Source: Conus ventricosus (lineage: Eukaryota; Mollusca; Gastropoda; Neogastropoda; Conidae). From it: a stretch of DNA of 64,000 bases. Below, in pieces: positions 31,201-64,000 of the stretch (positions are counted from its first letter, which is position 1; each line of letters opens with the position of its first letter). Location: positions 67,048,698 through 67,112,697 of the forward strand of contig CM031620.1 of assembly GCA_018398815.1 (NCBI GenBank), read 5' to 3'. Under the pieces are notes generated by a model. That model was not told the DNA's origin, searched no databases, and saw only the letters and a list, made by a program, of their open reading frames with translations. Made by a program: the position numbers and the translations under genes.

Positions 31201-31480
31201 TTTAAGGGCGAAAAGGGACATAATTTTGGGGCCCGGAGAAAACCCCTTAAAAAGAAAAGGAATATCTTTGCATTTTTTGCATCGAGCATAACGCATTTAC
31301 CTAAAAAAGAAGCTTGTTCAAAAAAAATACTTTTATTCTGAAAACGTTTAAAAATTTCGATTTTAATTACATGAGATCAACCAAGGTTGTAACAAAGAAG
31401 TCATTTGATGAACAAACACAAAAACGGGGGGGTTGTTTTTTAAACCAGAGTTTTTTTTATGCAATTGGACATTGGAGAAC
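28200..31480 (+). pseudogene. POLB: Protein-primed family B DNA polymerase, copy B
   Basis: Nucleotide landmarks match copy C throughout. A GAAGAAGCCAAAAT string near 28,280 matches C near 36,490. GAACAGTTTATGAAA lies at 30,600. GAAGAACACTGATCTCAGAAC near 30,630 is exact in C. The C-terminal coding end (GCAATTGGACATTGGAGAACTG) lies near 31,460. Role and domain plan are as described for element D. All frames are broken by smearing. The gene converges with the integrase. Confidence 0.7.
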
Positions 31481-31499
31481 TGTTTAAAAATTTAAAAAG

Positions 31500-32480
31500 C
31501 GAACTGTGTCTGGTGGGTTTAAACCCGCCCGTTCCTCCTTTACAAAAGGTTTTTTGAGGGAGCTGGTTTGTTTTGGGTTTTGGGGCGTTTCTGTAAATAA
31601 TACACGGGGGGATTCATTTTTACAATTTTTTTATTTTATATGGGAAACAACACTCCAAACTGGGTCGGTTGCCCTGATGTTTAGTGTCCCCTTCTCTTCC
31701 CCTTCCCAAAAAAAGGTTTCCTTACTTTTAAAAACCCAAAAGGGAATATTTGCTGGGGGTACTGGGGTCTTTTTTCAACATTTTTTGTTTTTTTTTTTTG
31801 GGGTTGCTTTACCGGTTTTTTTGAAACCTTTAATTTAAAACTTAAATTTTTCATTGCGCGCAAAACTGAGGGGAGGGCCTAACCCATTCTGGGTTGCGAG
31901 AATTTTTCAATCCCTCTCTGTGATACTGGTTTGGGGGGAAAAACTTTCCCGCTAACTGTTTTTTTAAAAAATTTTTTAACAAAGCCTGTGATTTTGAACT
32001 CCTTTGGGAAGACCCCTTTTAATTTGGGAAACCCTATTTTTAAAAAAAATTGATTCACCTCGGCCCTTTTAAAAACTTTTCCATTCCAAACGGACGGGGT
32101 TCCCGGGGGGGAAGTTTTGCGGGCCTCATTGGTATATCAGCCCGTATGGCCAAAAAGGGAACCCCAGAAGCACCTTTTGGGGGTTTTTTTGGGTTTCCCC
32201 ATCTTTGTATCTTGAAAACTATGTTTAATGACCCGTAATGGTTTCTTAAATCTTTTTCGTCTAATTTGTATCATGGGGGAAAATTTCCAAAATCCATTTG
32301 ATGGGTGTCTTTTTGGGGGTTTTTTTCACAAAGGCGGTCTCCCGTATTTGTTAGGTGGGGGGGAAGGTAAAAAAATTTGCCAAAACGCTTTTTTTTAGTA
32401 ACCCTTCCTTTGCCGTTTGTTCACGACCCCCCTGCTTGGGTTGCTTTTTGTTTTCGGTTTTTCCCTTCCAATATCCTTTT
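31500..32480 (-). pseudogene. INT: Retroviral-type (DDE) integrase, copy B
   Basis: Minus-strand fragments align with copies A, C and D. The C-terminal region starts near 31,540. An LRAMKN-type block (31,681-31,863) corresponds to LRAMNN of C. The catalytic core lies near 32,200-32,330 by nucleotide similarity (CCATTTGATGGGTGTC at 32,292). Broken frames throughout. Confidence 0.65.
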
Positions 32481-32489
32481 TGGGGAATT

Positions 32490-32920
32490 TAAAAATTTTG
32501 TTTTATTTTTTTTTTCAGCCCAAAAATTTTGCGCAAAAAAAATACCCCAACGGGCACCAAAAAAACGATAAACACGATTTCTTTTATCTTTTTGTTTTTT
32601 TGATGGATGATAAAAGTCACTGAATTTTTTGGGGGGGGCCCCCCCCCCCCCCAAATGTTTCATTGGGTTTTGGGGGGCCCCTTACAAGATAATATTCTTT
32701 TAAACGCTTTATCAAAATTTTTTAAATGTGTAAGCTGCATGCCCCTGTTTTTTTTGTTTGTTTTTTAAAAAAATCCCAACTGCCAATTCCCCCTGCTTTT
32801 CATTGTGATCGGCGCTTTCGGCAAATTCTCCAGCTTTTTTAAGGTTTTTTTTCTTCCGTCATCCCCCAGTTACTAAAAAGCGTAATTACTTCCCCTTTAA
32901 AAAAAAAGCGCATTCACCAC
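32490..32920 (-). pseudogene. Small conserved protein m1, copy B
   Basis: The minus-strand segment reads PPKKFSDFYHPSKKQKD (within 32,421-32,663). It matches PPELSDFYEPSEEQK of m1 in element D, the clearest m1 trace in A or B. It is followed by a hydrophobic C-terminus in D. Same place and strand relative to INT. Function unknown. Confidence 0.55.
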
Positions 32921-32994
32921 TGAAACCCCCAAACAACCCTTTGGGTGAAGGGCCCTTTTTTTTTAAAAAAATTTTTTAATTTTTACATATTTAT

Positions 32995-33272
32995 ACTGTC
33001 AGGGAAATTTTTCCTTGCTTAACTAGAAAATCTTTCGTACGAACGAAGCTTTCAATAATAAACAAACAGCTTTGGCCCAAAACCTCAAAGTCCCAGCTTC
33101 CAAGATTTTGCCCGGGTTTTTTTTTAAAGGCTTTTTCCCCCAAAAATTGTGTTTTCCCCAAACTTTGACCTTTCCCAAAAACACAAATGGGTATACAAGG
33201 GGTTGGGGAACATTTTTTTCGGGGGCTCATTTTTTTAAAAAAAAAAATAATTAAAATTAATAAAAAAACCAT
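32995..33272 (-). pseudogene. Small membrane-type protein m2, copy B
   Basis: On the minus strand the block RTKDFLVKQGKI closes the frame (32,991-33,272). It corresponds to the KDFLVTQGII end of the D paralogue. Located between m1 and s as in A and D. Function unknown. Confidence 0.5.
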
Positions 33273-33284
33273 TTAACGCGGGTG

Positions 33285-33760
33285 AACAATACAGTAAAAA
33301 GGCAAGCCTAAACCTTTCCGGGCCTTTTTGAATGAAGAAGTTTAGGCCAAACTATTATGCCCAAAAAAGGGAGGTTTTTATTCTTTTGGGCCCAAAGTGG
33401 AAAAAAAAAAAAAAACATTCCCCGAAATGAATTTTGCATAAAAAAATTTAACAGATGTCGCCACAAGACATTGGGAAAAATATCATACAAGGGATGAAAA
33501 CGCCAAATTGGATCAAAATGGGAAAAGGGAGGGGAAAAAGGTTTTTTATTTTTTACACTAAACCCGCAGTAGATTTGCCTCCCATTGTTCTGAACAAACT
33601 TTATGGATGATTTAACACAGGATCCATTTTTAAAAAAAATCATTAAGTCCCCAAGCTGTGATCTATATTAAAAGATTCCCGGGAAAATTGTTTCGCCATT
33701 AATCAAGGGATTAAATTTCTTTAAAAAATTTTAGGGTTTTGTTACCCTTCAAAAAAGAAC
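33285..33760 (+). pseudogene. Small conserved protein s, copy B
   Basis: Plus-strand traces of CGKTKTF (about 33,400), EKYHTRDENAKL (about 33,475) and CDLYIK-type sequence (about 33,657) align with ACGKTRQ, EKYYAGYEARL and CDMYYS of element D. The spacing shows the protein is longer than the first open frame in D. Function unknown. Confidence 0.5.
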
Positions 33761-34800: not shown

Positions 34801-36430
34801 GGCTTGATGAAACTAAAATTTAAAAAAACAATCCTTTTTTACAATTTTCCCTTTTTCCCTTTCATCCCTTTTCCTTGGGGCAGCCCCTTTAAATTTTTAG
34901 CTTATAAAAAAATTGGGGAAACTGGGGCGCCCATTGTCACTTTATAGTTTGGGGCCAGCCAACGCAAAATCGCCTGCGCAAATTAACAAAAATTGCATAC
35001 CGGGCCCGGGGCCGCGGGCCCGGAATATATATTCTCTAAAGTCTTTAAAAAATGAGTTATATTTTTGGGCATAAAAACCACCACCTTATTCCAGCTGGGC
35101 TCCGCTGAAGGGGAAATTTTTTCAAAGTGTTTTCTTTTTTTTTCTAGTTTCTTCTTTCCAAACAGTCCCTCTTTTAATAAAAAAGCGTCTGCGTTCCCTC
35201 AAACATTCTATACCAAATTTTAACCATAAATTTTAACCCAAAAAACCCCCCAACGTCGGAAAAAGGTAAGGGCAATCCCCAGGGGCGGGAATTAGTGGCT
35301 TTGCTGGACAAAAGAAGCTGGTTTTTTGCTCCCCACGGGCCCGTAATTTCCTCCCTTTAAAAGTTTTTTTTTTTTCGTAGTTCCCTGAGAGAGAATTAAT
35401 TGTTAAAATCTTTTATTTTTATATTTTAAAAGCTAAAATATTTAATATAAATATTGAACAAATAGTGACTAAAGGGGTTTAAGGGGAAGATACAGTTGTT
35501 TTTTGGTCTTTTAAAAAAATTCTACTTAAATAAAAAAAAACTTTTTCAACATTTACACTGGGGCACCATTGAATTTGAAAACTTTCAATGTGTTGGGGTT
35601 TATAACTGTTTTCATAACGGGTAATGTGAAAGATCGTGTACTTTTTAGCAGCCCCAAAAAGGGGTTTGGGGGTGTAGTGGCCCCCGAAACTATGTCAAAA
35701 AGGGGGTTTGGGATGCACTTTTACATAATTTGCAAGCCCCGTTTAAATTTTTGGGTTTTTTTTACTCCTGCGGGGGTTTTCCCCAAAAAACTAAAAATTT
35801 AGCCCTTAAAAAACGCCTAAATTTAGATTTTTGAAAAACCCCCCCCCACGGGGAAAATTCCCAAAAAAAACGCAGGATTTAAACAAAAAAAAAAAATCGA
35901 AAAGTTTTGTAAATTAGTATTGAAAAAAGGTAATCCTACACCCGTAAGGGGTTTTTTTGTAAAAAAAATCGTTTTTTTTTTTTGGGTTTTTTGAAAAAGA
36001 AAAGTGTAGGGGTTATCAAAAAAAACGTAGGAACAGGAAATTTCCCCAACCAGGGCATTTCCCCCGAAAAAAGGGTTTAGGGGGGATGTGAATTAAGGGT
36101 TTGGGATTTCCCCCTTTTTCCGCTTGGCTATCGGCAGAATGGGAAATTTGGGTTCCCAACCCCCGATGTTTTTATTTGCGTTTGATGCCCCGTTTTAATG
36201 TTTTTTCATGCTGGGGGTTCCCGTGTTTTTTTTGGGGTTTTTTGGTTGTTTTACGGGGGGCCCCCTTTTCCAACAACGATTTCCATTTATCCCCGCAGTT
36301 ATTTACTATTTTTTTTGTTTTGGGATTAAGAGTTCTAAATGGGGTTTACATAGTATTAGCCCTTTTTCGTTTAGGCATAAGTTCCACCCTTTTTGAAATA
36401 ATTTCTGGTTTGGTGAATTTCCCCCTTTTC
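34800..36430. other. Smeared sequence, no feature recognised
   Basis: Heavily homopolymer-smeared. No TIR of B, no counterpart of A 18,780-19,850 and no gene can be identified. Quality improves abruptly near 36,430, where copy C begins, which suggests an assembly join. Confidence 0.4.
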
Positions 36431-36439
36431 TAATGATTA

Positions 36440-39400
36440 AACCTCTGGTTGGGCAGACGAACTGCTTACACAGTTTGATGTGGCCGCTGAAGAAGCCAAA
36501 ATGAGAGGCTCTGGTTGGTCAGAGGGCGAAGTCTTGAGATTAAGATTTAAAACAGGCTAAGTATGCCCCGATTGTTGGTAAGGCTTACATTCCACTACCT
36601 CCAGCATTAGTTGCAAAAAGAGCATTTTTAAAACATAAAGAATACAGACGACAAATGTTTTATGTGGTGTGTTCTTGAAAGGGTTTTGCATTATGTCGGC
36701 CAAAAACGCAGAGAGAGTGTCTAACTATCAACCTTACATCAATGATCTTAACTTTAGCGGAATATCCTTTCCTGTTAGCGTGGACAAAATTGATCAGTTT
36801 GAAGAACAAAACAAACCAATAACTGTCAATATCTACACATGGATGAGGAAACAAATCTACAGCCAAATTAAAGTGTCCAAAAACAGTCCAACGATTGGCG
36901 AGCCAGACAAAACCCATGTTGACTTACTACTGATGTTTTCACCAGCAGGGCTACCACATTACACTTTTAATACGTACAATGAGTAAACTAATTGCAGCAT
37001 GCTTCAAGAATGGGAATAAACAAGAATTATGTAGAAAATGTTTTACAAAAATTTCCATCTGTTCAAGCCGCAAGCGAACATAAGAAACATTGTATCGGCC
37101 CAGTTGACTGTAATACAGACTAATTACGCCCCAGAAGGCAGTAAAGTTAGTTTTAAGAACTGGAAACGGATGCAAAATTCCCCATATGTTTTTTTCGCAG
37201 ACTTCGAATCATCATTGTTCCTTATGGGGGGCCAACCCCGCAGAAACTTCCAAAAACAGCCTTTGTGAGTAATCATCAGTTTTTTTCATTTGCTTTCATT
37301 GTTGTCAGGTCGGATGCGCTCATTCAACGCCAGAATTATACAGAGGACCAAATGCGGCTAGAAGATTTTTACAGCGCATGCAGCAAGTGCGTAATGATTG
37401 TTCTATAATCTGAATTTATTGAAATCATGATGACCCCTGAAGATCAACAACAGTATGACTCAACCACACATTGTTGGTTTTGTGGTTTAGGCCTTCATCA
37501 GACGCAGCAAATCCAACAGAAAAAGCCATGTTTCACATTAGTGGGAAGTTCAGAGGAGCAGCACACAGTAATGCAATCTTCAACTAAAGTTTAAAACCAA
37601 AAATGGAAGCTGCCCATCTTCTTTCAACAACTTGCGAGGTTACGACTTCATCTTATAATGAAAGCAGTGGACGGACGCCTTCAGGGTAACATGCATTGCA
37701 CAGTCATCGGAAAGTAATGTGTTTCACTTTAAAAACAGTCTTTTTATGACTCTATGCAGACATGATGGGATCATTAGAGTTGCTGGCTATGTCCCTTAAG
37801 CCCTGCCCAATAACGGAAGAATATTTTGACCCAACTCTCGTTAGAAAGGGTGTTTACCCTTAGGGAATACATGAACAGTTGGGAAAGGTTTTTGATGAAG
37901 ACACACTTCCTCCTAAGGGCGCGTTCTTTTTTAGTCTTAGAGGAAAGGAAATCAGTGATTCCGATTACCAACATGCTCAAGATGCGTGCAGAAGTTAGAG
38001 TGTAAAACGATGGGAGACTATCATGATTCATACTTGAGGGCAGATGTATGTTTGTTGGCGGACGTCTTTGAAAATTACAGAAAGACCTGCATGAAACATC
38101 GCCTGGACCCTGCGCATTATATTTCTGCGCCCGGGTGAGCTGGGACGCTTTTCTTAAAGTTTACTAAAGTACAGATTGATTTATTGTCTGACCTACCAAT
38201 GATTCAGATGATTGAAAACGGATTGCGTGGAGGATTAGTATGGCGTCGCATCATTACTGTAAAGCAAACAACAAATACTTGGACGATTATGACCCAAGTA
38301 AAAGGTCTAACTATCTCATGTATTTAGATGCAAACAATCTGTATGGATGGCGCCCTTGCCATCATAATCACTTCCATTACGCAACTTTAAAATGTACACA
38401 GATAATACGAATAAAATTCAAAAAGCATTAAAGTGGTTTAAACAGTTTAACGCCCGGGTCAACGCGTAGATACATTCAGAAGTTGACTTAGAATATCCTC
38501 ATGAACTCCATGACCTGCATAATGACTATCCATTAGCAGCAGAAAGCCTAAAGATGGGAAAAACAGAACCGCCTAAACTTGTGCCTAATCTTCGAGGCAA
38601 AAAAAATTTGTCTGTCATTACGACTTCTGCAATTTTATTTAAGACAGGTTTGAAGTTGGCAGTGTTCATTCGTATAATTGCTTTTGATCAAGAACAGTTT
38701 ATGAAACCATACATCATGAAGAACACTGATCTCAGAACTAAATCCACAGATGCTTCAGAAAAAGACTTTTTCAAGTTGATGAACAACAGCTGTTTTTGGG
38801 AAAAACTATGGAAAATCCCCACAAGCGCAAAGAGTCAGATTGGTCACCAAAAGAGAACGAAGCAATTAAGCTGACTTCAAAACCAAATTATCAGGACTTT
38901 AGAAAATTTCATGATCAGCTTTTTGGCATAATAATGAAAAAAAGAAAAGTCAAATTGGATAAGCCTGTATTTATTGGGTTACTGTTTTAGAATTATCAAA
39001 GCTTTTTATGTTAGAATTTCTTTATGGACTACTTTAAGCCCTGTATCCTGAGTCCAGGTGCTTTACACAGATACAGTAGTTTTGTTATAGATATCCCTAC
39101 TGAAAACATCTATAAAGACATGGAATTAGAAGTAGCTAAAGGGCAGCGGGAGGTACGACACATCCCATTACCCTAAAGATTCGCCTTTGCATTTTAAATT
39201 TCTAATAAGAAGGTTTTAGGAAAGATGAAAGATGAATTATCTGGAAAGGTGATTAAGGAGTTTATTTGGTTTTAAGGTCGAAAAGTACAGTATTTCGAGC
39301 AGGAGAAACCATTTTAAAAAAGCAAAAGGAAAATCTCGCAGTGTTGTGCAGTCGAGCATATCGCATGACAACTACAAAGAAGCATTGTTCAAAAAAACAT

Positions 39401-39560
39401 ACTTTTCATCATGGGCAACGTAAAACTACGATCTAATCTACATGAGATCAAACAACGGTTGTAACAAGAAGTCATTAGATAGAACAAACACAAAACGGGT
39501 GTTTGTTAATCCAGAGTTTTCATATGCAATTGGACATTGGAGAACTGTAATTAATTAAAG
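36440..39560 (+). pseudogene. POLB: Protein-primed family B DNA polymerase, copy C
   Basis: Plus-strand pieces in order: an N-terminal region from about 36,440; a 105-codon piece (36,669-36,986) with FPVSVDKIDQFEEQN; an exonuclease I-like FFADFES (about 37,190); MNSWERF (about 37,870); polymerase motif A region YLDANNLYGW (about 38,318); EKDFFKLMNNSCF (about 38,757); KTMENPHKRK (about 38,800); FSYAIGHWRT equivalent at the end (about 39,520). Comparison with D shows many frame breaks, one inside the YxDTDS catalytic motif (about 39,065). An HNH-type segment is recognisable near 37,480-37,580 but damaged. A single intact gene would be over 1,000 codons; this copy is not functional as assembled. 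Confidence 0.85.
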
Positions 39561-39574
39561 CGGAACTGTGTCTG

Positions 39575-40251
39575 GGGGGGATTATCTGCAGTTCCCCCTT
39601 CACAAAAAATCTTTTAGGAGTGGTTGTTTTGTTGGGCAGTTTCTCGTAATAATACACGGGCGGATTCATTTTTTCAATTCTTTTTATTTCATATGGATCA
39701 ACACTCCAAACTGGATCGGTTGCCCCGATGTTTAGTGCCCTTCTGCTTCCCCGGCAAATAAAGGTACCTTACTTTCAAACAAACGGTAATAGTTTGCTGG
39801 GTGTACTGGAGTCTTCTTCAACATTTATTGTTTGTTTTTTGATTGCTTGTACTGGTTTTAGACCCGTTAATTTAAAATCTTCATTATTCATTGCGCGCAA
39901 AACTGAGGGCAGTCTTCTAACCCATTCTGTGTTGCGAGAATTGTCAATCAGCTCTCTGTGATACTGGTAGGAGAAAAGTCTTTCAGCTAACTGTTTGTTA
40001 AAATTTTCAACTAAAGCCTGTGATCTGTGAACTCCTGGAATGCCTCTTTTAATGGTAACTCTATGTTTTAACAATAATTGATTCACTCGGCCTTTAAATT
40101 CTTTTCCATCATCGACTTGAATCATGCGGGGATAAGTTAGCGGGCCTCATTGGTATATCAGCTGTATGACAACAGCAACAGCAGAAGCACTCTTTTGTGT
40201 TAATGGTTCCGCATCTTTGTATCTTGAAGCTATGTCAATGACTGTAAGTGC
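39575..40251 (-). pseudogene. INT: Retroviral-type (DDE) integrase, copy C (cut by gap)
   Basis: A 116-codon minus-strand frame (39,775-40,125) holds the second catalytic Asp context (IQVDDGKEFKG) and the catalytic Glu context (SQALVENFNKQLAERLF), then NTEWVRRLPSVLRAMNNE. A C-terminal chromodomain-like segment with PPVYY continues down to about 39,590 in another frame. The N-terminal part, with the first catalytic Asp, is lost in the N gap. Spacing between Asp and Glu fits the DDE integrases of Polintons and retroviruses. Neighbour: convergent POLB. Confidence 0.85.
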
Positions 40252-40351
40252 NNNNNNNNNNNNNNNNNNNNNNNNNNNNNNNNNNNNNNNNNNNNNNNNN
40301 NNNNNNNNNNNNNNNNNNNNNNNNNNNNNNNNNNNNNNNNNNNNNNNNNNN
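40252..40351. other. Assembly gap (100 N)
   Basis: Exactly 100 N, a conventional placeholder of unknown true length. It separates element C from host microsatellite DNA, so the right part of element C may be hidden here. Confidence 0.99.
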
Positions 40352-47925: not shown

Positions 47926-47929
47926 CAAA

Positions 47930-51495: not shown

Positions 51496-51812
51496 ATATC
51501 ACATTGTAGGGAATCACAAGTATTTCCAGATAATAGACAATGGGAAGAGATGCTCATTTAGGAACTATTCCTGATCAAGTATTGAAAACTTTACATATGC
51601 AGTAATACTTGTGATAATTTGGAAAACGTATGCATCACTTTAGACCACGTAGAACAGACAGAGAAGCCACTGCATGAGACACATCTTCTGCACAAGGATC
51701 ACCTCAGTGAGACCAAGTCCACCTCCAACAAAAGATGCATTCAACATCCATACGCAGAACAGTTCAATAATAAAACAAGATGCGAAGCATATAAACGTAC
51801 TCCCAGTTTTCC

Positions 51813-54675: not shown

Positions 54676-55675
54676 NNNNNNNNNNNNNNNNNNNNNNNNN
54701 NNNNNNNNNNNNNNNNNNNNNNNNNNNNNNNNNNNNNNNNNNNNNNNNNNNNNNNNNNNNNNNNNNNNNNNNNNNNNNNNNNNNNNNNNNNNNNNNNNNN
54801 NNNNNNNNNNNNNNNNNNNNNNNNNNNNNNNNNNNNNNNNNNNNNNNNNNNNNNNNNNNNNNNNNNNNNNNNNNNNNNNNNNNNNNNNNNNNNNNNNNNN
54901 NNNNNNNNNNNNNNNNNNNNNNNNNNNNNNNNNNNNNNNNNNNNNNNNNNNNNNNNNNNNNNNNNNNNNNNNNNNNNNNNNNNNNNNNNNNNNNNNNNNN
55001 NNNNNNNNNNNNNNNNNNNNNNNNNNNNNNNNNNNNNNNNNNNNNNNNNNNNNNNNNNNNNNNNNNNNNNNNNNNNNNNNNNNNNNNNNNNNNNNNNNNN
55101 NNNNNNNNNNNNNNNNNNNNNNNNNNNNNNNNNNNNNNNNNNNNNNNNNNNNNNNNNNNNNNNNNNNNNNNNNNNNNNNNNNNNNNNNNNNNNNNNNNNN
55201 NNNNNNNNNNNNNNNNNNNNNNNNNNNNNNNNNNNNNNNNNNNNNNNNNNNNNNNNNNNNNNNNNNNNNNNNNNNNNNNNNNNNNNNNNNNNNNNNNNNN
55301 NNNNNNNNNNNNNNNNNNNNNNNNNNNNNNNNNNNNNNNNNNNNNNNNNNNNNNNNNNNNNNNNNNNNNNNNNNNNNNNNNNNNNNNNNNNNNNNNNNNN
55401 NNNNNNNNNNNNNNNNNNNNNNNNNNNNNNNNNNNNNNNNNNNNNNNNNNNNNNNNNNNNNNNNNNNNNNNNNNNNNNNNNNNNNNNNNNNNNNNNNNNN
55501 NNNNNNNNNNNNNNNNNNNNNNNNNNNNNNNNNNNNNNNNNNNNNNNNNNNNNNNNNNNNNNNNNNNNNNNNNNNNNNNNNNNNNNNNNNNNNNNNNNNN
55601 NNNNNNNNNNNNNNNNNNNNNNNNNNNNNNNNNNNNNNNNNNNNNNNNNNNNNNNNNNNNNNNNNNNNNNNNNNN
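54676..55675. other. Assembly gap (1,000 N)
   Basis: Exactly 1,000 N, a placeholder. Long open frames drawn across it are artefacts. It hides the 3' end of the LINE and the left part of element D. Confidence 0.99.
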
Positions 55676-55676
55676 C

Positions 55677-55754
55677 ATAACCATACAGATAAACAAGAAA
55701 GCAGACGGAACGGCCAATACAATGCACGTTTTGTGGTTTGTGACGCTCAGTTAA
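55677..55754 (+). CDS. C-terminal tail of an unidentified element gene
   Basis: The first readable bases after the gap are open on the plus strand to a TAA at 55,752-55,754. They end in a short strand-like sequence (ITIQINKKADGTAN then MHVLWFVTLS) with alternating hydrophobic residues. It lies 71 bp before the ATPase on the same strand. A virion protein would suit this position and the beta-strand pattern, but 25 residues do not allow a family call. Confidence 0.35.
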   Translation: MTIQINKKADGTANTMHVLWFVTLS

Positions 55755-55770
55755 ACATTGAAAAACAGGC

Positions 55771-55821
55771 TAAAAGAAATAACCTATTAAAATGCATGTT
55801 AAAAGAAATAACCTATTAAAA
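55771..55821 (+). promoter_or_regulatory. Tandem duplication before ATPase start
   Basis: The 22-mer starting TAAAAGAAATAACCTATTAA occurs at 55,771-55,792 and 55,800-55,821 (period 29). The second copy ends 4 bp before the ATG at 55,826. AT-rich; a likely promoter or leader, by position only. Confidence 0.5.
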
Positions 55822-55825
55822 ACAG

Positions 55826-56438
55826 ATGGATAGTTTGAACTTTCTGCCCAAAGATCCACACTGTTCGCTTATTTGTGGGATTACTGGGTGTGGGGAAACT
55901 GTCTTCGTACTTGATTTGTTACAAAAAATATACAGGTTTCATTACGAGTACATTGTTATATTCTGCACAACCATTAAGCACAACAAGTCTTACAAAGAGA
56001 GGAAGTTTATTTGGACAGACGAGAATATATTTTTAGTTGATCCTACTGACAAGCTAAGTGATTGTTTAGAACAATACTAAAGTTATTTGAAGGAACTGAA
56101 ACGCTGTTTATTATTGATGACTGTTCAGCTGAATGAGACATTGTTAAAAACAGAAAAGCTCTGTCAAAGCTAGCCTTTAGTGGGCGCCACGCCTTAGTTT
56201 CTGTGTGGCTCTTAACTCAGAAATACAATGCTGTCTTAAAAGACTTTAGATCGCAGTTAAAATCGGTTGTATTATTTTACACTAAAGACAAAGATAGTTT
56301 TGAAGAATGTTTTAGTGAAAATTATATAATAAGGGACAGGGATGAGCTAAAAAAATAAAAGAGCAATTAGAAACGTCTAAGCACACTAAACTATGCTTGC
56401 GGACTGACCCCCCAGTTCAATACGTTTGCTTATTATAG
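55826..56438 (+). pseudogene. ATP: Packaging ATPase (HerA/FtsK type), element D
   Basis: Three frames in order. 55,826-56,080 has the P-loop region CGITGCGETVFVLDLLQK, where the Walker A lysine position (55,895-55,897) is GAA, glutamate. About 56,070-56,355 has the Walker B strand LFIIDD followed by CSAE, an in-frame TGA (56,134-56,136), then FSGRHALVSVWLLTQKYN and LKDFRSQLKSVVLFY. The last part ends in LRTDPPVQY with TAG at 56,436-56,438. Breaks lie near 56,070 and at an A-run at 56,349-56,355. Length is about 200 codons, usual for Polinton ATPases. It would drive DNA packaging. Loss of the lysine should abolish ATP hydrolysis, whereas copy B seems to retain it. Confidence 0.85.
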
Positions 56439-56510
56439 ATTGTTTATTATAGACTGCTTATTATAGACTTTTTATTATAGACTGCTCATTATAGATTGTT
56501 TATTATAATT
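56427..56510 (+). promoter_or_regulatory. Six 14-bp tandem repeats before x1
   Basis: Six consecutive 14-mers of form TGYTTATTATAGAY (one begins TTT, one has TCATT, the last ends AATT) fill 56,427-56,510 without spacer. The first unit contains the ATPase stop codon. The array ends 14 bp before the x1 ATG (56,525). It resembles a multiplied TATA-rich promoter element. Confidence 0.7.
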
Positions 56511-56524
56511 TTCATATTAAAAAA

Positions 56525-57368
56525 ATGTCTCGCGGGCCAGAATCAAAAGCGCAGCTAGCTCCTAAATACATTGCAGTAGAGCTAAAAGACCTAGCAGACA
56601 CAGCCGAGTTTGATCTGATAGGGGTGATAGGAAATGTTTATGGATTTGAATACACAGATGATGGGGTTTACAAACGAACAGAAATTGAAGACAAAAAACG
56701 CCAGCAGTATCCCACCCTGGAAGAGATAAGAAATCTAGAAACAACTGATTACGGCAAATGCGAATACAGGCTTTATAAACAAGACAACAACTGGGTCTTG
56801 CGTCCCGAAATTAACTGGGATTTAAAATTTGACTTACGAAGCCCCAATGTATACTTTGATAAGAAATTTTTTTAGAAAGGCTTTGAATGCAGGACCCTTT
56901 CTTGCTAGTCTTGTCCCAAGAACACAACAGAAAAAGCAGATTGTAATAGATAAATATAAGCGCGAATATGTGCTGAGCAGAAAGAAGCCCTTAGCTGAAG
57001 TGGGGGATGACACTGTAACCCTAGAATTTATCCCAAAATGTCCAATGCCTAACACTGCTACTTTAATTTTTGTTTTATTAATTACTCCAGGGGAGTCTAA
57101 TTCTAGTTTGCCAGAACATGTGTTAGCAAGGGGAGTATTAATAAAGTCTGAAAACTTGGATGGCCCTCTTAGGCTTGTTATTGCCATTACTAAAAACGGG
57201 GATGAAATAAACACCTTCTTATCATCTGACAAAGTTACTGTGATGGTTGACAAAGCCAAACTAACAGTACTCGACTTTAGTTTCATTACGTATGTTGATT
57301 TTATTGGGTTATACTCTGTTGATGAAGTGCTGCCAGAAGAGTTAATAAGAACAATGTTACAAAATTAA
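56525..57368 (+). pseudogene. Unknown element protein x1/x2 (one gene split by a frame break)
   Basis: 56,525-56,875 (116 codons, starts MSRGPESKAQLAPKY) ends at TAG inside a run of seven T (56,867-56,873). An open second frame continues from there through LASLVPRTQQKKQIVIDKY to TAA at 57,366-57,368. Both parts have the same composition, and there is no spacer or start context between them, so one gene of roughly 280 codons is likely. The second part has many alternating hydrophobic residues, suggesting beta-structure. It follows the ATPase on the same strand. The protein is not recognised; a minor virion component is possible but unproven. The split could be a sequencing indel, decay or, less likely, programmed frameshifting. 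Confidence 0.6.
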
Positions 57369-57415
57369 TCTTAATTAAAAAAAATATTTTTTACAAAATT
57401 AATCTTAATTAAAAA
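57357..57415 (+). promoter_or_regulatory. Tandem duplication between x2 and x3
   Basis: A 25-mer beginning TTACAAAATTAATCTTAATT occurs at 57,357-57,381 and 57,391-57,415 (period 34). The first copy covers the last codons and stop of x2; the second ends directly at the x3 ATG (57,416). Confidence 0.6.
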
Positions 57416-57959
57416 ATGGATGATCAGGCTCAACAGTTTAGATTAGAGCACATAACTGAACTTCAAAAAGAAATAGAAAGTGACTTGGATAAGTATAGGG
57501 TTACTAGAAAGAAATATGCTAAAGCTTTGAATACTCTTTCCTATGTAATTACTGGCTCATCAACTGTAGCTTGCGTAAGTGCTGGGTCTAGTGTTGCTCT
57601 TTTAGCTACTGGGGCTGGAGTACCAGTCTCTTTAGCTTTTGGGGGTGTTGGGTTAAGTTTAGGTGCTGTGTCCACGATTATGAGTGCTGTTTTTAAAAAA
57701 AATAACTCCTAAATTACAAAAGCACACTGCCATTGTAGCCTTAGCATCAGCTAAACTTTGTTCATTAAGATTAAGAATAAGCAAATCAATGCAGGATGAA
57801 AACATTACAGACGAAGGATTTCAGCGGCTTATGGCCGATGGTGATGATTACAGACGCCAAAAAATTGAACTTCAAAAGGAGCGGAGAAAGACTTTTACTT
57901 CACGACAGGTAAACACTGTGGCAATCAAACAGAACATTGAAAAACAAACAATCAGTTAA
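57416..57959 (+). pseudogene. Conserved element protein x3 with glycine-rich hydrophobic core
   Basis: 57,416-57,712 has a charged N-terminal helix (QFRLEHITELQKEIESDLDK, then RKKYAKAL), followed by a hydrophobic glycine/alanine-rich stretch (ACVSAGSSVALLATGAG, then LAFGGVGLSLGAVS) of about 45 residues. At an eight-A run (57,695-57,702) the frame shifts. The remainder (57,684-57,959 frame) is helical and charged (KLCSLRLRISKSMQDENITD, then EGFQRLMADGDDYRRQK). I have seen this architecture (helix, glycine-rich membrane-like core, second helical part with an ISDEEF-type turn) in proteins near such polymerases in invertebrates, but know no function. About 180 codons in all. It converges on INT. 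Confidence 0.6.
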
Positions 57960-58080
57960 ACCCAAAATAAATCATAAGTTAAAAATAGAATATGAATTAA
58001 AAATCATAAGTTTAACCAAAAAATAAAAAATAAATAAATAAATAAAATATGTTATAAACATTCATACTATTTTTTTTAAA
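57960..58080. other. AT-rich convergent spacer between x3 and INT
   Basis: Very AT-rich, with AATAAA hexamers on the plus strand (for example in the TAAATAAATAAATAAAAT run near 58,030). Suitable for bidirectional transcript ends of x3 and INT. Confidence 0.45.
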
Positions 58081-59041
58081 CTAACTAACAGGCACTGTGT
58101 TTGGTGGGACAACTTGCAGCTCTTCACGAACAAACGATCTTTTAGGAGCAGGCTTTTTAGAAGAAAGAGTTTCTCTTAAATAATACACAGGAGGGGCTGT
58201 TTTCATAATTCGTTCAACTTCATATATGTCTACGCTCAATATAGGGTCTGTGGCTCTAATTCTAACATCGCCCTCTGCCTCTCCAGGAGCATACACGTAT
58301 CTTACTTTTAGCCCAAACGGCAAGAGTTTATGAGTGCCCTGCACATCTTCAGTAATGCTAATTGTTTTTAAATTTGATTGCGTTTACTGGTTTAAGACCT
58401 GTTGCTTTAAATTCTTCATTGTTCATGGCGCGTAAGACAGCCGGCAACCTCCTAACCCATTCTGTGTTGCGTGCTCTGTCCATAATTTCTTTGTAATATT
58501 GATAGGTAAACAGACGTTCAGCTAGAATCTTATTAAAGTTTTCTACTAGGGCTTGGGAGCGATGGTTGCCTGGAATCCCTCTCTTAACTGTAACCTGGTG
58601 TTTTAAAAGCAGTTGGTTTACAGCCCTTTAAACTCTTTTCCATCATCAACCTGGATCAGCCTAGGATACTTTAATGGGCCTCGCATGTATATTTGTTGTA
58701 AAGCCACAGCAAACAGCAGTTGAGCTTTTATCTGTTAAAGGCTCAGTGTCTTTGTATCTTGAAGCCATGTCAACAACAGTTAGAGCATCCTTAAACTTTT
58801 TTCTTCTAACTTTGTCATGTGGAAGATACAACAAGTCCATCTGGTGGGTGTCATTTGGAACTGAATTAACAAATCTAGGTCTTATTATTCTTTTTGGGGC
58901 AGGCAGATATATTTGCCAAATTGCTTGTTTAGAAAGCCAGTCTTTTGCTTCTGATTCAGACACACCAGCAGCTTTACTTAGTTTATTAATAGCAGTCTTT
59001 CCTTTCCAATACCCTCTAGGAGAATAATATATTTTATCCAT
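58081..59041 (-). pseudogene. INT: Retroviral-type (DDE) integrase, element D
   Basis: Start chosen at ATG 59,039-59,041 (MDKIYYSPRGYWKG); an earlier in-frame ATG at 59,098 would overlap the end of m1. N-terminal domain to about residue 50, then the core with the first Asp (NDTHQMDLLYLPHD), LTVVDMASRYKDTEPLTDKS, second Asp (IQVDDGKEFKG), Glu region (SQALVENFN), NTEWVRRLPAVLRAMNNEE, and a C-terminal chromodomain-like part (58,081-58,344) with PPVYYLRE and FVREELQVVPP. Frame breaks near 58,680, 58,630 and 58,360. All three acidic residues are visible, so catalytic capacity is retained apart from the breaks. Integrates the element into host DNA. Upstream on the same strand are m1 and the m2 pair. 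Confidence 0.92.
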
Positions 59042-59075
59042 AAGAAAGGACTGTATTTTATTTGTTGTTGTTTTT

Positions 59076-59464
59076 TTACTCAAGAAAGTGAGCAACAAGA
59101 TAGACTGACGTCATGCCAACTAAAATGAAAGCTATCTCTGCAGTCTTCTGTTCTTCTGATGGTTCATAAAAGTCAGACAGTTCTGGCGGTGACGATGTTA
59201 GAAACTTCTTTCCTGTCACTAAGTAATACTCATTCATTGCACCATCAACGTCTGTAAATGTGTGCTCTGCATGACCTTGTTCTCTTAACTTTTTATTAAT
59301 AAAGTCTAAGTCAGCAATCCTCCTTTTTCATAAACCTCTTTTGCCTTAGCTAAATCTTCCATTGCCTTATTATGGCGTTCTCTTTCTTCATCAGACCGCA
59401 ATTTACTAAACATATAGTTGCTCCCGGAGAAAGCCAGTGCATTAACAATAGCTCCTCCTACCAT
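59076..59464 (-). pseudogene. Conserved small element protein m1, element D
   Basis: Minus-strand reading from ATG 59,462-59,464: MVGGAIVNALAFSGSN, then a charged helix with ERERHNKAMEDLAKAKE, a frame break near 59,325, DFINKKLREQGHAEHTF, DVDGAMNEYYLVTGKK, PPELSDFYEPSEEQK and a hydrophobic C-terminal segment ending at TAA 59,076-59,078. About 129 codons. The layout is hydrophobic N-terminus, coiled-coil-like middle, proline/aromatic motif, hydrophobic C-terminus. Present in B (clearly) and A (faintly) at the same place. It overlaps nothing and ends 35 bp before the INT start. I recognise it as a recurrent neighbour of such polymerase/integrase elements but not its function. Confidence 0.65.
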
Positions 59465-59556
59465 CAGAACCAATCCAGCATCTTTTTTATAAATGAATAT
59501 TTTCTAGAATTAATATTCTCTGTCATGCATTAATCTTTCTATGCATTAATATTTTC
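59465..59556 (-). promoter_or_regulatory. Imperfect tandem repeats before m1
   Basis: On the minus strand, units of form AGAAAATATTAATGCAT, AGAAAGATTAATGCAT, CAGAGAATATTAATTCT and AGAAAATATTCATTT follow each other, period about 16-19 bp. The first unit contains the end and stop codon of the upstream m2-like gene. The same pattern of duplication at a gene junction occurs elsewhere in this element. Confidence 0.5.
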
Positions 59557-59765
59557 TGGGATAATCCCCTGTGTAACAAGAAAGTCTTTTGACGCAATTC
59601 CTGCAGTAATTACAACTATAACCTTAACAACATCCTCAATGTCTAACCTTCCTAGATCAGCTGGCCTCATTTTAAACATGTTTTTTGCTAACACGCTATA
59701 GCTATACTAAGGCCGCTAATTACAGCAGAGTGGTAAATAGTATTAATGATCTTTGCAGTGCTCAT
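59539..59765 (-). pseudogene. m2-like small membrane protein, second copy
   Basis: ATG at 59,763-59,765 starts MSTAKIINTIYHSAVISGLS; a frame break occurs near 59,695 at a TATAGCTATAGC duplication. It continues VLAKNMFKMRPADLGRLD, then EDVVKVIVVITAGIASKDF, LVTQGIIPENINA, TAG at 59,539-59,541. About 75 codons. It shares spacing and motifs with the adjacent m2 gene (Y-S-x-LAK, P-x-x-G, D/E-D, KD-x-L-x-x-x-x-I), so the two are paralogues. Its N-terminal ATG lies inside the end of m2. Hydrophobic; a membrane role is inferred. A and B appear to have only one member. Confidence 0.6.
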
Positions 59766-60000
59766 GTTTTTTATTAACTAAAAAATAATTAAAATAATCA
59801 TAATACGAAAGACTGTCTATGTGCTTTTTAATCAGATAATCTTTTGTTGTTAAAGCTAAAAGTAAGGTTGCAACTAGTTTTGGTGAATCTTCTATTTTTC
59901 CCATGTAGGGTGGTTTTATTCTTAGCAAACATTTTGCAAGAGTTGAATAAACTATAACACCAACAATAGGCACTGCATAATTAACCAACGTTAAACTCAT
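59743..60000 (-). CDS. m2 small membrane protein, element D
   Basis: Intact 85-codon frame, ATG at 59,998-60,000 (MSLTLVNYAVPIVGVIVYS), then TLAKCLLRIKPPYMGKIED, SPKLVATLLLALTTKDYLI, ending KKHEHCKDH. Two hydrophobic segments (residues about 3-25 and 44-56) suggest a small membrane protein. The reading frame overlaps the start of the downstream m2-like paralogue by about 23 bp. Divergent from s across a 63-bp spacer. Function unknown. One of the few unbroken frames in the element. Confidence 0.65.
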   Translation of the reverse strand: MSLTLVNYAVPIVGVIVYSTLAKCLLRIKPPYMGKIEDSPKLVATLLLALTTKDYLIKKHIDSLSYYDYFNYFLVNKKHEHCKDH

Positions 60001-60063
60001 GGTTTTAAAAGTATTGTTTTAAAAGTATTATATTATTTTTATTGTTTTTAAAAGGGTTTAAAA
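60001..60063. promoter_or_regulatory. Divergent AT-rich promoter region between m2 and s
   Basis: A perfect 14-bp tandem duplication (GTTTTAAAAGTATT at 60,002-60,015 and 60,016-60,029), then AT-rich sequence up to the s ATG at 60,064. It is the only sequence available to start both m2 (-) and s (+). Confidence 0.5.
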
Positions 60064-60488
60064 ATGGACTGTGACGAACTATAAAAGTGTGAGGAGCAAG
60101 CAGACTACTACTCAGCAGACTACTACTCAGCAGACCACTCCGAAAGCCTCTGTCATAAAGAAAGATTATACTCTCTGGCTGCGTGTGGAAAAACTAGACA
60201 GTATTTAGGTGTTGAACTAAGTATTGAACAGATTCAACAATTGTCTACTTCAGACGTTGAGAAGTATTACGCTGGGTACGAAGCACGCTTGGGTAAAAAT
60301 GGTTAGATCGGTGGGGCAGACATGATAGTTATATGTAAGTTAGTGGCAAGATGGCGTCAATTGATTCAGAGAAGATTTAAAATACGACCTATCACAAGAT
60401 CCAGTTTAAAAAAGTCCTAGAAACTCTTGCATGTGACATGTATTACAGTATTTGGGGACTATATTATGCCATTCATCATGGGTTTTAA
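60064..60488 (+). pseudogene. Conserved small element protein s, element D
   Basis: ATG at 60,064 is followed by TAA at codon 7 (60,082-60,084). Beyond it the frame stays open to TAG at 60,304-60,306 with a YYSADYYSAD duplication, then LYSLAACGKTRQYLGVELS, IEQIQQLSTSDVEKYYAGYE and ARLGKNG. After more breaks, a segment KVLETLACDMYYSIWGLYYA runs to TAA at 60,486-60,488. Copies A and B have matching blocks with the same spacing, so the protein is longer than the first open part. The GKT string is not part of a P-loop context. Function unknown. Confidence 0.55.
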
Positions 60489-60518
60489 TTTTTTAATCAT
60501 ATTAAAATCTTTATTCAC

Positions 60519-60737
60519 TTAAAAAAAAGAGCGACCAGGAGGAAGAAGATTGTAACCCACAGGGCAGATATGACTCCACAGAGAATGCCCAGGGGAAGTT
60601 TCCCAAAATGATTTCCACAAGTGAGTAGTGTTACTAAGACTAAAATCCTGGGCGTGTGGGCTGGCATGACTAGTTGAATGGCACAGATGAAAAAGCAATA
60701 CCATGCAGCAAAACAAAATTATTAGATAGTAATACAC
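60519..60737 (-). CDS. Hypothetical 72-codon frame
   Basis: Starts MYYYLIILFCCMVLLFHLCH, a signal-peptide- or membrane-like N-terminus, then a Ser/His/Pro-rich tail. The opposite strand of the same interval reads as a basic Arg/Lys-rich frame (KRATRRKKIVTHRADMTPQ) with stops, so the real coding strand is uncertain. No counterpart found in A or B. Confidence 0.25.
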   Translation of the reverse strand: MYYYLIILFCCMVLLFHLCHSTSHASPHAQDFSLSNTTHLWKSFWETSPGHSLWSHICPVGYNLLPPGRSFF

Positions 60738-60975
60738 AAATCGCCAACCAGCACCACCGCATCAAAAACAACAACAAACAACACACAATCAAACTGTAAG
60801 ATGTTATTATTATAAAGTATTGGGGGGTGTTGTTGTGGTGGCTTTTGATTTAACTTACCATTATCTAAAACATGTTTAGCAACAAAGTCACAAAAGCCAA
60901 CAAAATCAGTAAAAGAAGAAGAACCAGCTCTGACAAAAAAAAGTACAACCTCTGCTGCAGACCATTTTTAATGGA
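60722..60975 (-). other. Open frame without ATG after s
   Basis: On the minus strand, right after a TAA, about 80 codons are open: KWSAAEVVLFFVRAGSSSF, then TDFVGFCDFVAKHVLDNGK, then a PPQQHPPIL linker and a hydrophobic end (VLFVVVFDAVVLVG), stopping near 60,722. There is no start codon, so it could be an exon-like or broken remnant. The WSxxEV opening recalls the first helix of SAM domains, but the rest does not clearly fit. Function unknown. Confidence 0.3.
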
Positions 60976-60999
60976 TTATTTTTTTAATGTGTGTGTTAG

Positions 61000-61330
61000 T
61001 ATGGTTAAGTATGGTTAAGTGCAAATTAGTACAAGTTAAAAGTACAAGTTAAAATACTGGTTAAGTCAGTTATAATCAAGGTAAAGTATAAGTTAAGAAC
61101 TTGACAAGTAAGTACAAGTAAGTACAAGTCATGTTAAGTACAAGTACAGTGTTGTCATGTTCTTAACTTAAATACAAGTAAGTACAAGTCATGTTAAGTA
61201 CAAGTACAGTGCTTGTCAAGTTCTTAACTTAAGTACAAGTAAAGTACAAGTAAAGTACATGTAAGGTACTTGTCAAGTTCTTAACTTAAGTCAGTCAAGT
61301 TCTTAAGTCATGTTCTGGACCAAGTTATGT
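61000..61330. repeat. AAGTACAAGT repeat block with inverted segments
   Basis: Many copies of AAGTACAAGT, GTTAAGTACAAGTACAGTG and AAGTTCTTAACTTAAGT over about 330 bp. Larger direct repeats exist: the string ending CATGTTAAGTACAAGTACAG occurs twice (about 61,130 and 61,190). Complementary stretches such as TAAGTTAAGAACTTGACAAG and CTTGTCAAGTTCTTAACTTA give inverted repeats. It lies between s and POLB; A and B have a related array at the end of their right arm. Confidence 0.85.
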
Positions 61331-61349
61331 TCTAGGCCAAGGTATGTTC

Positions 61350-64000
61350 TTAATCTTTTAAAGTTCTCCAATGGCCTATAGCATATGAAAACTCAGGATC
61401 AACGTAAGTTCGCTTGTTATTGTTAGAGACTAGTGATTTCTTATTAACAGCAGTTGTGTTTACTTGATGAAGAGTAGAGCGTAGATTAACATTTGTGTGA
61501 TGAAATACTTTGCCTTCAAAGAGAGCCTGCTTGTAGTTATCATGAATTATATTTTTTTACAACTTCTTTACCTATGCCCTTAGCCTTCTTCATTACAGAG
61601 GTCTGGCTAGCAACACTATACAGCTTTGACCGTAGACCAACATATTCTTGTATAACTGTCCCATTAAGTTCATCTTTAAACTTTCCAAACACTTTCTTGT
61701 TTACAGTTGAATGTAAAGGGCTGTCTTTAGGATAGTCACATGTGTCGTACCATCCATCAGCTCCTTTAGCTACCTCTGTTTCTAAGTCTTTGTAAAAGTC
61801 TTCTGTGGGGACGTCTAGAATAAAAGAGTCAGTGTCTGTGTAAAGGACTCTAGATTCTGGGTACAGCGGTTTAAAGTAGTTATACAGAAATTCTAGCATA
61901 AACAGCTTTGACAGCTCTAACACAGTAAACCCAATAAACACCTGCTTGTCCAACCTTACACACATTTTCTTCATCATAATGCCAACCAGGTCGTTATTAA
62001 ATTGTCTAAAGTCTAGGTAGTTAGGTTTAGAGACCAGTTTAATTGCTTGTTTTTCTTTTGTAACTAATCTCACATCTTTACGTTTGTGTGGGTTCTCCAT
62101 GGTCTTGCCAAAACAACTGTTGTTCATTAGTTTAAAAAAGTCTTTTTCTGAAGCGTCAGTAGCTTTAGTCCTAAGGTCAGTATTCTTCATGATGTATGGC
62201 CTCATAAAAGGCTTTTGTTCAAAAGTAATTATTCTGTGAACAGCAGTAAGTTTTAATCCATGTCTTAAGTAAAACTGTAGGAGCCTGTAATGACAAACAT
62301 ACTCAGTCTTATGACGGAGATTGGGCACAAGTTTAGGCGGTTCTGTGGGGGTCATCTTTAATCTTTCTGTGGCTAGAGGATAATCGTTGTGGAGGTCATG
62401 CAATTTTTAGGGTATGACAAGTCTACTTCTAAGATTAGTCCATGATCAGGCGCAAGCTTTGACAACGTATTTAACACAGCATCAACCTGAAAAGGGCCTG
62501 CATACATTTTAAAGTTTCTTAGTGGGAGTGTCTGACTCATGGCCCATCCATACAGATTATTAGCGTCTAAATACATTAGATAGTTGGATGGTTTAGCTGA
62601 GTCATAGTCATCTAAGTACTTATTTTTGGGTCTTTGCAGTAAGGATGTGAGGGCCATGCTAATACCTCCCTTAGACCGTCTTCAATCATCTGGAGTGTAG
62701 CTAGATCAGATATTAAGTCAATCTCATGTTTGTAGACTTTAAGAATGCGTCCCAAGAAAGGCCAGGGGCAGAGATGTAATGTGATGAGCCTAAGCCGTAA
62801 TGTTTCATGCATGTAGATCTGTAATTTTCAAAGATGTCTGCCAATAAACACACGTCAGCCAATAAATATTGATCATGATAATCGCCCATTGTTTGACAGT
62901 GTAATTCTGTCCAGGCTTTCTGTGCGTATTCATAGTCAGTGTCAGTTATGCCTTTGCCTGTAAGACGACTGTAAAAGTCTTCTTTATGTGGTAGGGCTGG
63001 CTCATCAAACCTTTCCCACGAGTCCATGTATTCATAAGGATAAACGCCTTTACGTACTAAAGATGGGTCAAAATATTGTTCAGTTATTGGGAAGTCTTGT
63101 AGCCATCCTGCTAATTTATCCAAACTCCCCATCCGATGTTGGGCAGAGTCATAGAAGGACAGATTGTCAATAATAAAGGTCATGTACTTTTCTGATGATT
63201 GTGCAATGCAGCTAACCCTCTTATATTCAGAAGTTATTGCTTGCATAATAAAATGAGAATCATAGCCTCGTAAGTTATGAAAGAAGATAGGCAGTTTCCA
63301 TGTCTTGGGTCAACCTTAAGTTGAAGATTGCAACTGTTGTGTGCAGCCCCTCTGAATTCCCCAGTAATGTGATCGTGGTCTCTTACAGTGCCATCTAATA
63401 GCCTGCATTTGCATATCCAGCAGTGTGTAGATGATTCATAGCGTTCTTGGTCTTTAGAAGTCATAACAATGTCTGAGAGATTTAGTTTATTGGCGTAGCA
63501 ATTACGAAGATGTTTCATTTCTTCTAAAAATCTACTGGCTGCGTTGGGGCCTCTGTAAATCCTTGGTGCTGCGTATGAGCCATCCGACCTAACAACAATA
63601 AAAGCATAAGAACAAATCTGATGGTTGGTTAATAAGGTTGTTATTTATTCTTCTAGTTGTTGTTGTGGGCCAAAGTACTGTGGCAAGATTGCTTCAAAGT
63701 CAGCATAAACTACGTATGGACTCATCTGCATTTTGTGTACATTTTTAAACCTAACTTTAGACCCTGGTGGGGGTGTAAGAAGTTTGGTTTCACAGTCTAC
63801 AAAACTTTTACAATTATCTTTATGTTTGGCGGCTGCTTCTACAGTGGGGATTCTAACCAAAACACCTTCTACAAAGCCCTTGTTTACATGTATCCTTTGT
63901 AGTATAAGCCATAAGTCTGCTTATTGTTCTAATTAATTCATAGTGGCTAACTGCTCCTTGTGTAAACGTATTAAGTCTAAGTCGCCAAAAGTGGGAGCAT
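61350..64000 (-). pseudogene. POLB: Protein-primed family B DNA polymerase with embedded HNH motif, element D (N-terminus beyond window)
   Basis: Minus strand, from the right edge. CRRCF...HKDNC zinc-finger-like pair (about 63,800-63,890, across a frame break); exonuclease I YADFEA (about 63,690); PRIYRGPNAASRFL; HNH/endonuclease VII-like CWICKCR then VRDHDHITGEFRGAAHNSCN (about 63,320-63,420); exonuclease II HNLRGYDSHFI (about 63,260); MDSWERF; exonuclease III YLLADVCLLADIFENYR (about 62,830); motif A YLDANNLYGWAMSQTLP (about 62,555); motif B MNNSCFGKTMENPHKRK (about 62,100); motif C YTDTDSFI (about 61,830); KLY (about 61,615); end YAIGHWRT, TAA at 61,350. Frame breaks near 61,545, 62,400, 62,650, 62,720, 63,240, 63,300, 63,520-63,645 and 63,860. 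It replicates the element from protein-capped ends. Confidence 0.94.

What the first reader, a model, noticed from the sequence alone, without database searches (positions are those of the whole stretch)
55676..64000. Virus-like element with a shared set of uncharacterised small genes beside POLB, INT and ATPase
Seen: polymerase, DDE integrase and HerA/FtsK-type ATPase together with x1/x2, x3, m1, two m2-type genes and s. m1, m2 and s recur in the same order in two other copies in this window (A, B), about 25-50 kb away. Known: Polintons/Mavericks and adintovirus-like elements carry the first three plus capsid genes and a protease. Inference: the small genes are a conserved module (membrane or virion-associated) of this lineage whose roles are not in the standard Polinton gene list that I know.
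Basis: partly seen in the sequence, partly recalled or inferred. Interest (0 to 1): 0.8.

Follow-up and report, generated by a model that had tools for sequence, protein, structure and literature searches.

The report
Polinton element with conserved accessory genes
This is one damaged copy of a virus-like DNA element that is repeated many times in an animal genome; its unnamed small genes recur in the same order in other copies, and one of them looks like a sugar-binding surface protein while several look like membrane proteins.

The parts
54676..55675 (.). assembly gap (N) at the left end of copy C
55676..55819 (+). C-terminal remnant of the capsid-like gene
   Evidence: frames match the frames upstream of the ATPase in L011, L015, L017 and L021 by eye
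55820..56355 (+). packaging ATPase (Pox_A32/FtsK type), two pieces
   Evidence: dN/dS 0.14
   Evidence: dN/dS 0.40 and 0.49
57416..57959 (+). x3, two frames; helix, Gly/Ala-rich hydrophobic stretch, helix; open frames of 169 and 185 aa in L009 and L017
58081..59110 (-). rve-type integrase (pieces)
   Evidence: dN/dS 0.22-0.36
59079..59503 (-). m1, two frames; hydrophobic segments at both ends; open frames of 141-163 aa in five other copies
59539..59706 (-). m2a, small hydrophobic protein (about 75 aa in other copies)
59743..60018 (-). m2b, diverged paralogue of m2a (33% identical over 46 aa)
60064..60306 (+). s, interrupted by stops here; longer in other copies
61350..64000 (-). family B DNA polymerase with HNH-like motif, in pieces, continuing to about C26:67113452 outside the window
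   Evidence: dN/dS 0.18, 0.23 and 0.39 for P2, P4, P5
4151..17671 (.). decayed unit 1 of a second subfamily: ATP- x12- MEPF+ COIL- MCP+ PolB+ INT- m1- m2- s+
20657..33731 (.). decayed unit 2, same order (x3+ also seen), head-to-tail with unit 1
35026..40251 (.). partial unit 3: ATP- then PolB+ INT-, ending at an N gap (40252-40351)

Best explanation
The locus is a degraded copy of a capsid-encoding Polinton/Maverick lineage. In the C subfamily the gene order, put together from several copies (no single copy was read end to end), is TIR - MHIY(-) - MEPF(+) - COIL(-) - MCP(+) - ATPase(+) - x12(+) - x3(+) - INT(-) - m1(-) - m2a(-) - m2b(-) - s(+) - PolB(-) - TIR. Shown: the small frames recur in fixed order in many copies, and x12, x3 and m1 evolve under purifying selection. 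Inferred: x12 is the virion attachment protein, with a conserved N-terminal part that docks to the capsid and a variable lectin-fold domain that meets the cell surface. x3, COIL, m1, m2a and m2b act at membranes, either inside the particle or while the genome crosses a host membrane. INT-m1-m2-s is inherited as one cassette, plausibly because its products work together in delivering and integrating the genome.
Against: No direct evidence of virions or function. Third-position excess is not significant for m2a (p .061), m2b (.19), s (.44) or MHIY (.056), while one non-coding control reaches .029, so single p values near .02-.04 (x1, one half of m1) are weak. Two non-coding controls gave dN/dS of .54 and .59, and m2b has .47 in another frame against .41 in the true one, so .4 alone is weak. 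MCP reaches Capsid_N only at E 0.016-0.19, below cut-off. Foldseek TM-scores for the x12 matches shown are at most 0.48, and no PDB hit has E of 0.001 or less by its own count. Membrane roles rest on hydropathy; PolB pieces P2 (1.69) and P5 (1.54) and the ATPase (1.56) also pass 1.3 on that scale. One m1 search of the protein database and scans of viral and prokaryote contigs found no relatives of m1, x3 or s.
Confidence: 0.62

Rival explanations
1. x12 is a structural minor capsid, cement or penton-like protein that only shares the beta-sandwich fold with lectins; it does not bind sugars.
For: The conserved N-terminal part and its place between ATPase and x3, downstream of the MCP, fit a structural protein as well; no penton gene was recognised.
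Against: The rows shown from solved structures are largely lectins, toxin binding domains and glycosidase domains, and the phage models include LamG/ConA-like proteins; the C-terminal domain is the variable part.
Confidence: 0.3
2. x3, m1 and m2 are late holin-like or egress proteins that open host membranes, not parts of the particle.
For: Small hydrophobic proteins; x3 gives weak hits to the pore-forming NheB model and to SLATT_1 in 4 of 4 related sequences tested (all far below cut-offs).
Against: m1 and m2 travel with INT rather than with the capsid/ATPase side.
Confidence: 0.25
3. m1, m2 and s are counter-defence or copy-control genes linked to INT only by position near one end; they hitchhike in short derivatives.
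For: INT with m1-m2-s sits next to the TIR in L035 and L039/L050 (in L030 a piece of INT does), and the cassette is duplicated in a capsid-less derivative.
Against: Order and content are kept in two subfamilies with different PolB and ATPase positions.
Confidence: 0.2
4. The small frames are chance open frames in decaying DNA.
For: Copy C is full of frameshifts; s, m2a and m2b fail the third-position test.
Against: dN/dS and frame controls, 141 of 150 m1 matches without a stop (hand count), conservation at 27-45% identity of m1, m2 and s in distant units, 37 full-length x12 relatives.
Confidence: 0.03

Closest known systems
Polintons/Mavericks of animals (PolB + rve INT + FtsK/A32 ATPase + DJR capsid)
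   Same: PolB, INT, ATPase, capsid-like gene, terminal inverted repeats, multicopy integration
   Different: no protease recognised in the frames scanned; x12, x3, m1, m2a, m2b, s, MEPF, MHIY and COIL have no Pfam match above cut-off
Adintoviruses / meldviruses (PMC11071296; passages and section 16 read)
   Same: PolB and rve integrase; that paper names membrane-active capsid-core (Macc) and coiled-coil (Cah) classes that x3 and COIL resemble in general character
   Different: no hexon, penton or adenain recognised here; no sequence comparison with that set was made
Polinton-like viruses of cryptophytes (PMC12220804; passages read)
   Same: LamG/ConA-superfamily modules in fibre proteins and SLATT putative pore proteins are reported there
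   Different: there mostly in long modular fibres of protist elements; here a compact protein of about 280 aa in an animal element, with only sub-threshold SLATT similarity of x3
Tectiviruses such as PRD1 (recalled)
   Same: capsid lineage thought ancestral to Polintons; many small membrane proteins
   Different: no sequence link tested; an internal membrane in Polintons is speculation here

Membership tests
Polinton/Maverick | family B DNA polymerase | tested here: met
   DNA_pol_B_2 E 1.4e-4 on 1 of 5 PolB pieces and 1.1e-4 on 1 of 3, both just under the cut-off; the frame shows a YTDTDS motif (motif recalled); terminal-protein domain not tested
Polinton/Maverick | retrovirus-like (rve) integrase | tested here: met
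   rve E 1.2e-10, 42 bits against cut-off 32.6, on copy L015; retroviral integrase chains at E 0.0044-0.056
Polinton/Maverick | FtsK/A32-type packaging ATPase | tested here: met
   Pox_A32 E 6.7e-15
[quoted passage not shown]
   Capsid_N E 0.19 and 0.016 on N-terminal pieces, below cut-off; C-terminal piece no Pfam match; no significant PDB sequence match; not modelled
Polinton/Maverick | adenain-like protease | tested here: inconclusive
   not among Pfam matches of the frames scanned; broken or unread frames not excluded
Polinton/Maverick | penton / minor capsid single jelly roll | tested here: inconclusive
   none recognised; MHIY and MEPF not modelled
Polinton/Maverick | terminal inverted repeats beginning AG (recalled rule) | tested here: met
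   AGAGAA... left termini in L018, L022, L024 and L039 (L014 one base off), inverted right termini in L030, L046 and L050; both ends of one element seen only in the short C3 element; none found in the window
Polinton/Maverick | 5-6 bp target-site duplication (recalled rule) | tested here: inconclusive
   one element checked: 5 bp CCTGA on both sides
Concanavalin-A-like lectin fold (x12, residues 88-262) | ConA/LamG-type beta-sandwich | tested here: met
Concanavalin-A-like lectin fold (x12, residues 88-262) | sugar binding | not testable with these tools
   needs an assay
SLATT / NheB-like membrane proteins (x3) | score above curated cut-off | tested here: not met
   NheB 14.5-21 bits against 500; SLATT_1 8.8-16.5 bits against 41

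The most novel reading that the evidence does not exclude
This animal Polinton lineage makes particles with a tectivirus-like internal membrane, whose proteins are x3, COIL, m1, m2a and m2b, topped by a lectin-fold attachment protein (x12); INT, m1, m2 and s form a membrane-linked delivery and integration device inherited as one cassette.
Probability: 0.2. Interest if true: 0.82.

Novelty: new variant of a known kind. Interest (0 to 1): 0.58.

Why it matters
How Polinton particles attach, cross membranes and deliver a genome is, as far as I know (recalled), an open question. This lineage supplies a testable candidate attachment protein and a short list of membrane proteins, with evidence of selection for several, in a genome that holds many copies. 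If an inner membrane existed it would tie animal Polintons mechanistically to their presumed tectivirus ancestors.

Tried and rejected
Tried without result: IMG/VR scans with PolB, INT, x12 (single and profile), MCP, x3, s and m1 and GTDB scans with the x12 profile and x3: no relatives by the tools' own confirmation. m1 against the protein database: 3 candidates, none scored. Phage records with a PolB piece: none. Pfam and NCBIfam for the small genes: nothing above cut-off; PHROGs: best E 0.038 among the 10 pieces tested. PDB sequences: no convincing match for x12, MHIY or MCP pieces. A separate model of the x12 N-terminal part was poor (pLDDT 66.9), so no fold is claimed for it. Structure-library absences: no capsid chain stands in the 50 rows; that excludes nothing.

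Considered and dropped: x1 and x2 as separate genes (homologues span both); frames rev60 and r605 as genes (dN/dS .77 and .71, no third-position excess); the fragments at 4-5.5 kb and 13-17 kb as separate elements (one search shows one unit); a chimeric PolB in L049 (its low protein identity goes with 75% DNA identity).

Errors of mine: pieces P1 and P3 were run in the wrong frame (1.36 and 1.38; the true frames appear as .28 and .23 under other frames; ranges corrected). Control ctl_interg1 (.52) overlaps the longer s gene and is no control; ctl_interg2 (.59), ctl_interg3 (.54) and ctl57960 (.94) remain, and ctl57960 has a third-position p of .029. Frames on the opposite strand that share third positions also show low values (.16-.58), as expected.

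Rows dropped: alignment A2 leaves out 4 short fragments of the 41 homologues; one search used 34 of 37 after an 80% identity filter; the count dropped tblastn pieces under 60% identity and is superseded; copies covering less than half of a piece were left out of that piece.
Full report
What is there. The stretch 55676-64000 holds, left to right, the end of a capsid-like gene (by eye), a packaging ATPase, x12, x3, a leftward integrase, m1, m2a, m2b, a rightward s and a leftward PolB that leaves the window. It starts at an assembly gap. ATPase, x12, x3, INT, m1, s and PolB are each cut by frameshifts or stops in this copy. MCP, MHIY, MEPF and COIL are my own labels for genes of the left half.

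x1 and x2 are one gene. A database relative of 262 aa spans both frames. A profile found 41 relatives among 7,999 scored candidates: 37 of 262-290 aa and 4 fragments of 70-105 aa. One bears a Trinity transcript name from EukProt, so the family is transcribed somewhere. Pfam gives no consistent family: 6 families each match 1 of 37 members, best E 0.0047.

The genome. The window lies in a 3.52-Gb assembly; the DNA of 56000-57000 alone gave 41 matches with 40 candidates scored. m1 gave 150 matches (the cap) from 18,576 candidates, all E 2.9e-38 or better, 9 of 150 with a stop (hand count). x1 gave 150 from 16,585, 12 with a stop, 20 with an uninterrupted frame of 262 aa or more (hand counts). 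MCP gave 150 from 26,321, frames up to 535 aa. These are lower bounds, and each list holds the best-scoring matches only, so stops are under-represented. A mollusc host is my guess from assembly size and from recalled genomes, not tested.

Gene order. Of 8 other copies read downstream of the ATPase, 6 (L009, L011, L013, L015, L017, L019) show the order ATP+ x12+ x3+ INT- m1- m2a- m2b- s+ PolB-, L017 and L019 with insertions. L021 is interrupted inside x12 and its stretch ends after x3; L023 reaches part of INT and then runs into Ns. The loci around the ten best m1 matches, the window's own included, show m1-m2a-m2b-s in 10 of 10 and INT beside m1 in 9 of 10. Pairing the capped lists gives 16 x1/m1 pairs 1.5-4 kb apart on opposite strands (23 pairs within 20 kb, 0.26 expected) and 23 MCP/x1 pairs on one strand (25 within 20 kb). 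Of 8 upstream stretches, 7 hold MHIY-, MEPF+, COIL- and MCP+ matches and L020 only MCP; AGAGAA termini lie left of MHIY in L018, L022 and L024. The right terminus beyond PolB was seen for one copy (L009/L046). The whole order is thus pieced from several copies.

A second subfamily in the window. Regions 4.2-17.7 kb and 20.7-33.7 kb are two decayed units in head-to-tail array, ordered ATP- x12- MEPF+ COIL- MCP+ (x3+ in unit 2) PolB+ INT- m1- m2- s+, with a partial third unit to 40.25 kb. MHIY was not found there, and only one m2 per unit. Compared with copy C, PolB and ATP/x12 have changed place and direction, but MEPF-COIL-MCP and INT-m1-m2-s keep their internal order. That is the best evidence that INT-m1-m2-s is a module. 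Controls: 10 of 924 shuffled or reversed queries reached 0.01 and 0 reached 1e-3, 2 of 130 reached 0.02 and 0 reached 1e-3. The weaker rows (COIL of unit 1; x3, m1 and m2a of unit 2) lie at 0.002-0.005 and lean on their position and, except COIL, on E values of 3e-5 to 4e-4.

Selection. With 4-15 mapped copies per piece, true-frame dN/dS is ATP .14/.14, x1 .40, x2 .49, x3 .43/.38, INT .26/.22/.36, m1 .41/.16, m2a .28, m2b .41, s .40, PolB P2 .18, P4 .23, P5 .39. Other frames on the same strand give .47-2.16; for these pieces the true frame is the lowest of the three. Remaining non-coding controls give .54.59 and .94. Third-position excess is significant for ATP, x12, x3, INT, m1 and PolB (p .043 or less), not for m2a (.061), m2b (.19) or s (.44); one non-coding control reaches .029. 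Left-half genes, 7 copies each: MEPF .31, COIL .45, MCP .38, MHIY .45, with third-position p of 1e-6.011.00012 and .056. So selection is supported for x12, x3 and m1, suggestive for m2a, undecided for m2b and s from this test; m2 and s are supported by conservation in the distant units.

Membrane character. Hydrophobic 19-residue windows of 1.75 or more occur in x3, COIL, m1 (both ends), m2a and m2b; MHIY, MEPF, the MCP N-terminal piece, x12 and INT have none above 1.3. The ATPase (1.56), PolB pieces P2 (1.69) and P5 (1.54) and one of two copies of s (1.41) also pass 1.3, so the scale is permissive. x3 hits NheB (1.5e-4 to 0.014) and SLATT_1 (0.006 to 1.5) in 4 of 4 related sequences, far below cut-offs; composition may explain this.

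Literature. PMC12220804 (passages read) reports LamG domains in PLV fibres and SLATT proteins proposed to form pores for endosomal escape. PMC11071296 (passages and section 16 read) defines adintoviruses and meldviruses and Macc/Cah classes. PMC3671162 and PMC6260650 were seen by passages and PMC11071308 by abstract and outline. In the listings of ten searches of the held library I saw no description of this gene set; I read only the papers named, and the library lacks most subscription papers, so this is weak evidence of novelty.

In passing. A 7.8-kb element (C3:56515356-56523165) is a palindrome: TIR-INT-m1-m2a-m2b-s-part of PolB-s-m2b-m2a-m1-INT-TIR, arms 3.0 kb at 97.2% identity, 5-bp duplication, no match at 1e-3 to the MCP, MEPF, COIL, MHIY, ATPase, x12 or x3 queries. 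Such forms would be expected from errors of terminal-protein-primed replication (recalled from adenovirus), which is inference.

Noticed in passing
own genome G000:C3:56515356-56523165 (L039, L050): Capsid-less palindromic derivative with 3.0-kb arms (97.2% identical) carrying INT-m1-m2a-m2b-s on both sides; possible snap-back product of protein-primed replication.
   Followed up: partly
L030, L035, L039: TIR directly beside INT (in L030 beside a piece of INT) instead of beside MHIY or PolB, so the arms exist in inverted arrangements.
   Followed up: partly
window 56826-56875; L009; L017: The x1/x2 split falls at the same place, a T-rich run in the window copy, in three copies, while 20 of 150 scored copies have an open frame of 262 aa or more; inherited, recurrent or a programmed shift is undecided.
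   Followed up: no
window 57416-57712 and copies: x3 gives weak but repeated hits to the pore-forming NheB model and SLATT_1.
   Followed up: partly
window 4151-40251: Head-to-tail array of two to three decayed Polinton units with homopolymer-rich, frame-broken sequence that may partly be uncorrected read errors.
   Followed up: partly
window 50129-52473: G-rich 80-bp minisatellite and a 242-bp tandem repeat.
   Followed up: no
window 47387-47937: Frames that look like a Tc1/mariner transposase fragment (by eye).
   Followed up: no
L016 3589-5665: Frames that look like a host LDLa-LRR G-protein-coupled receptor beside one copy (by eye).
   Followed up: no
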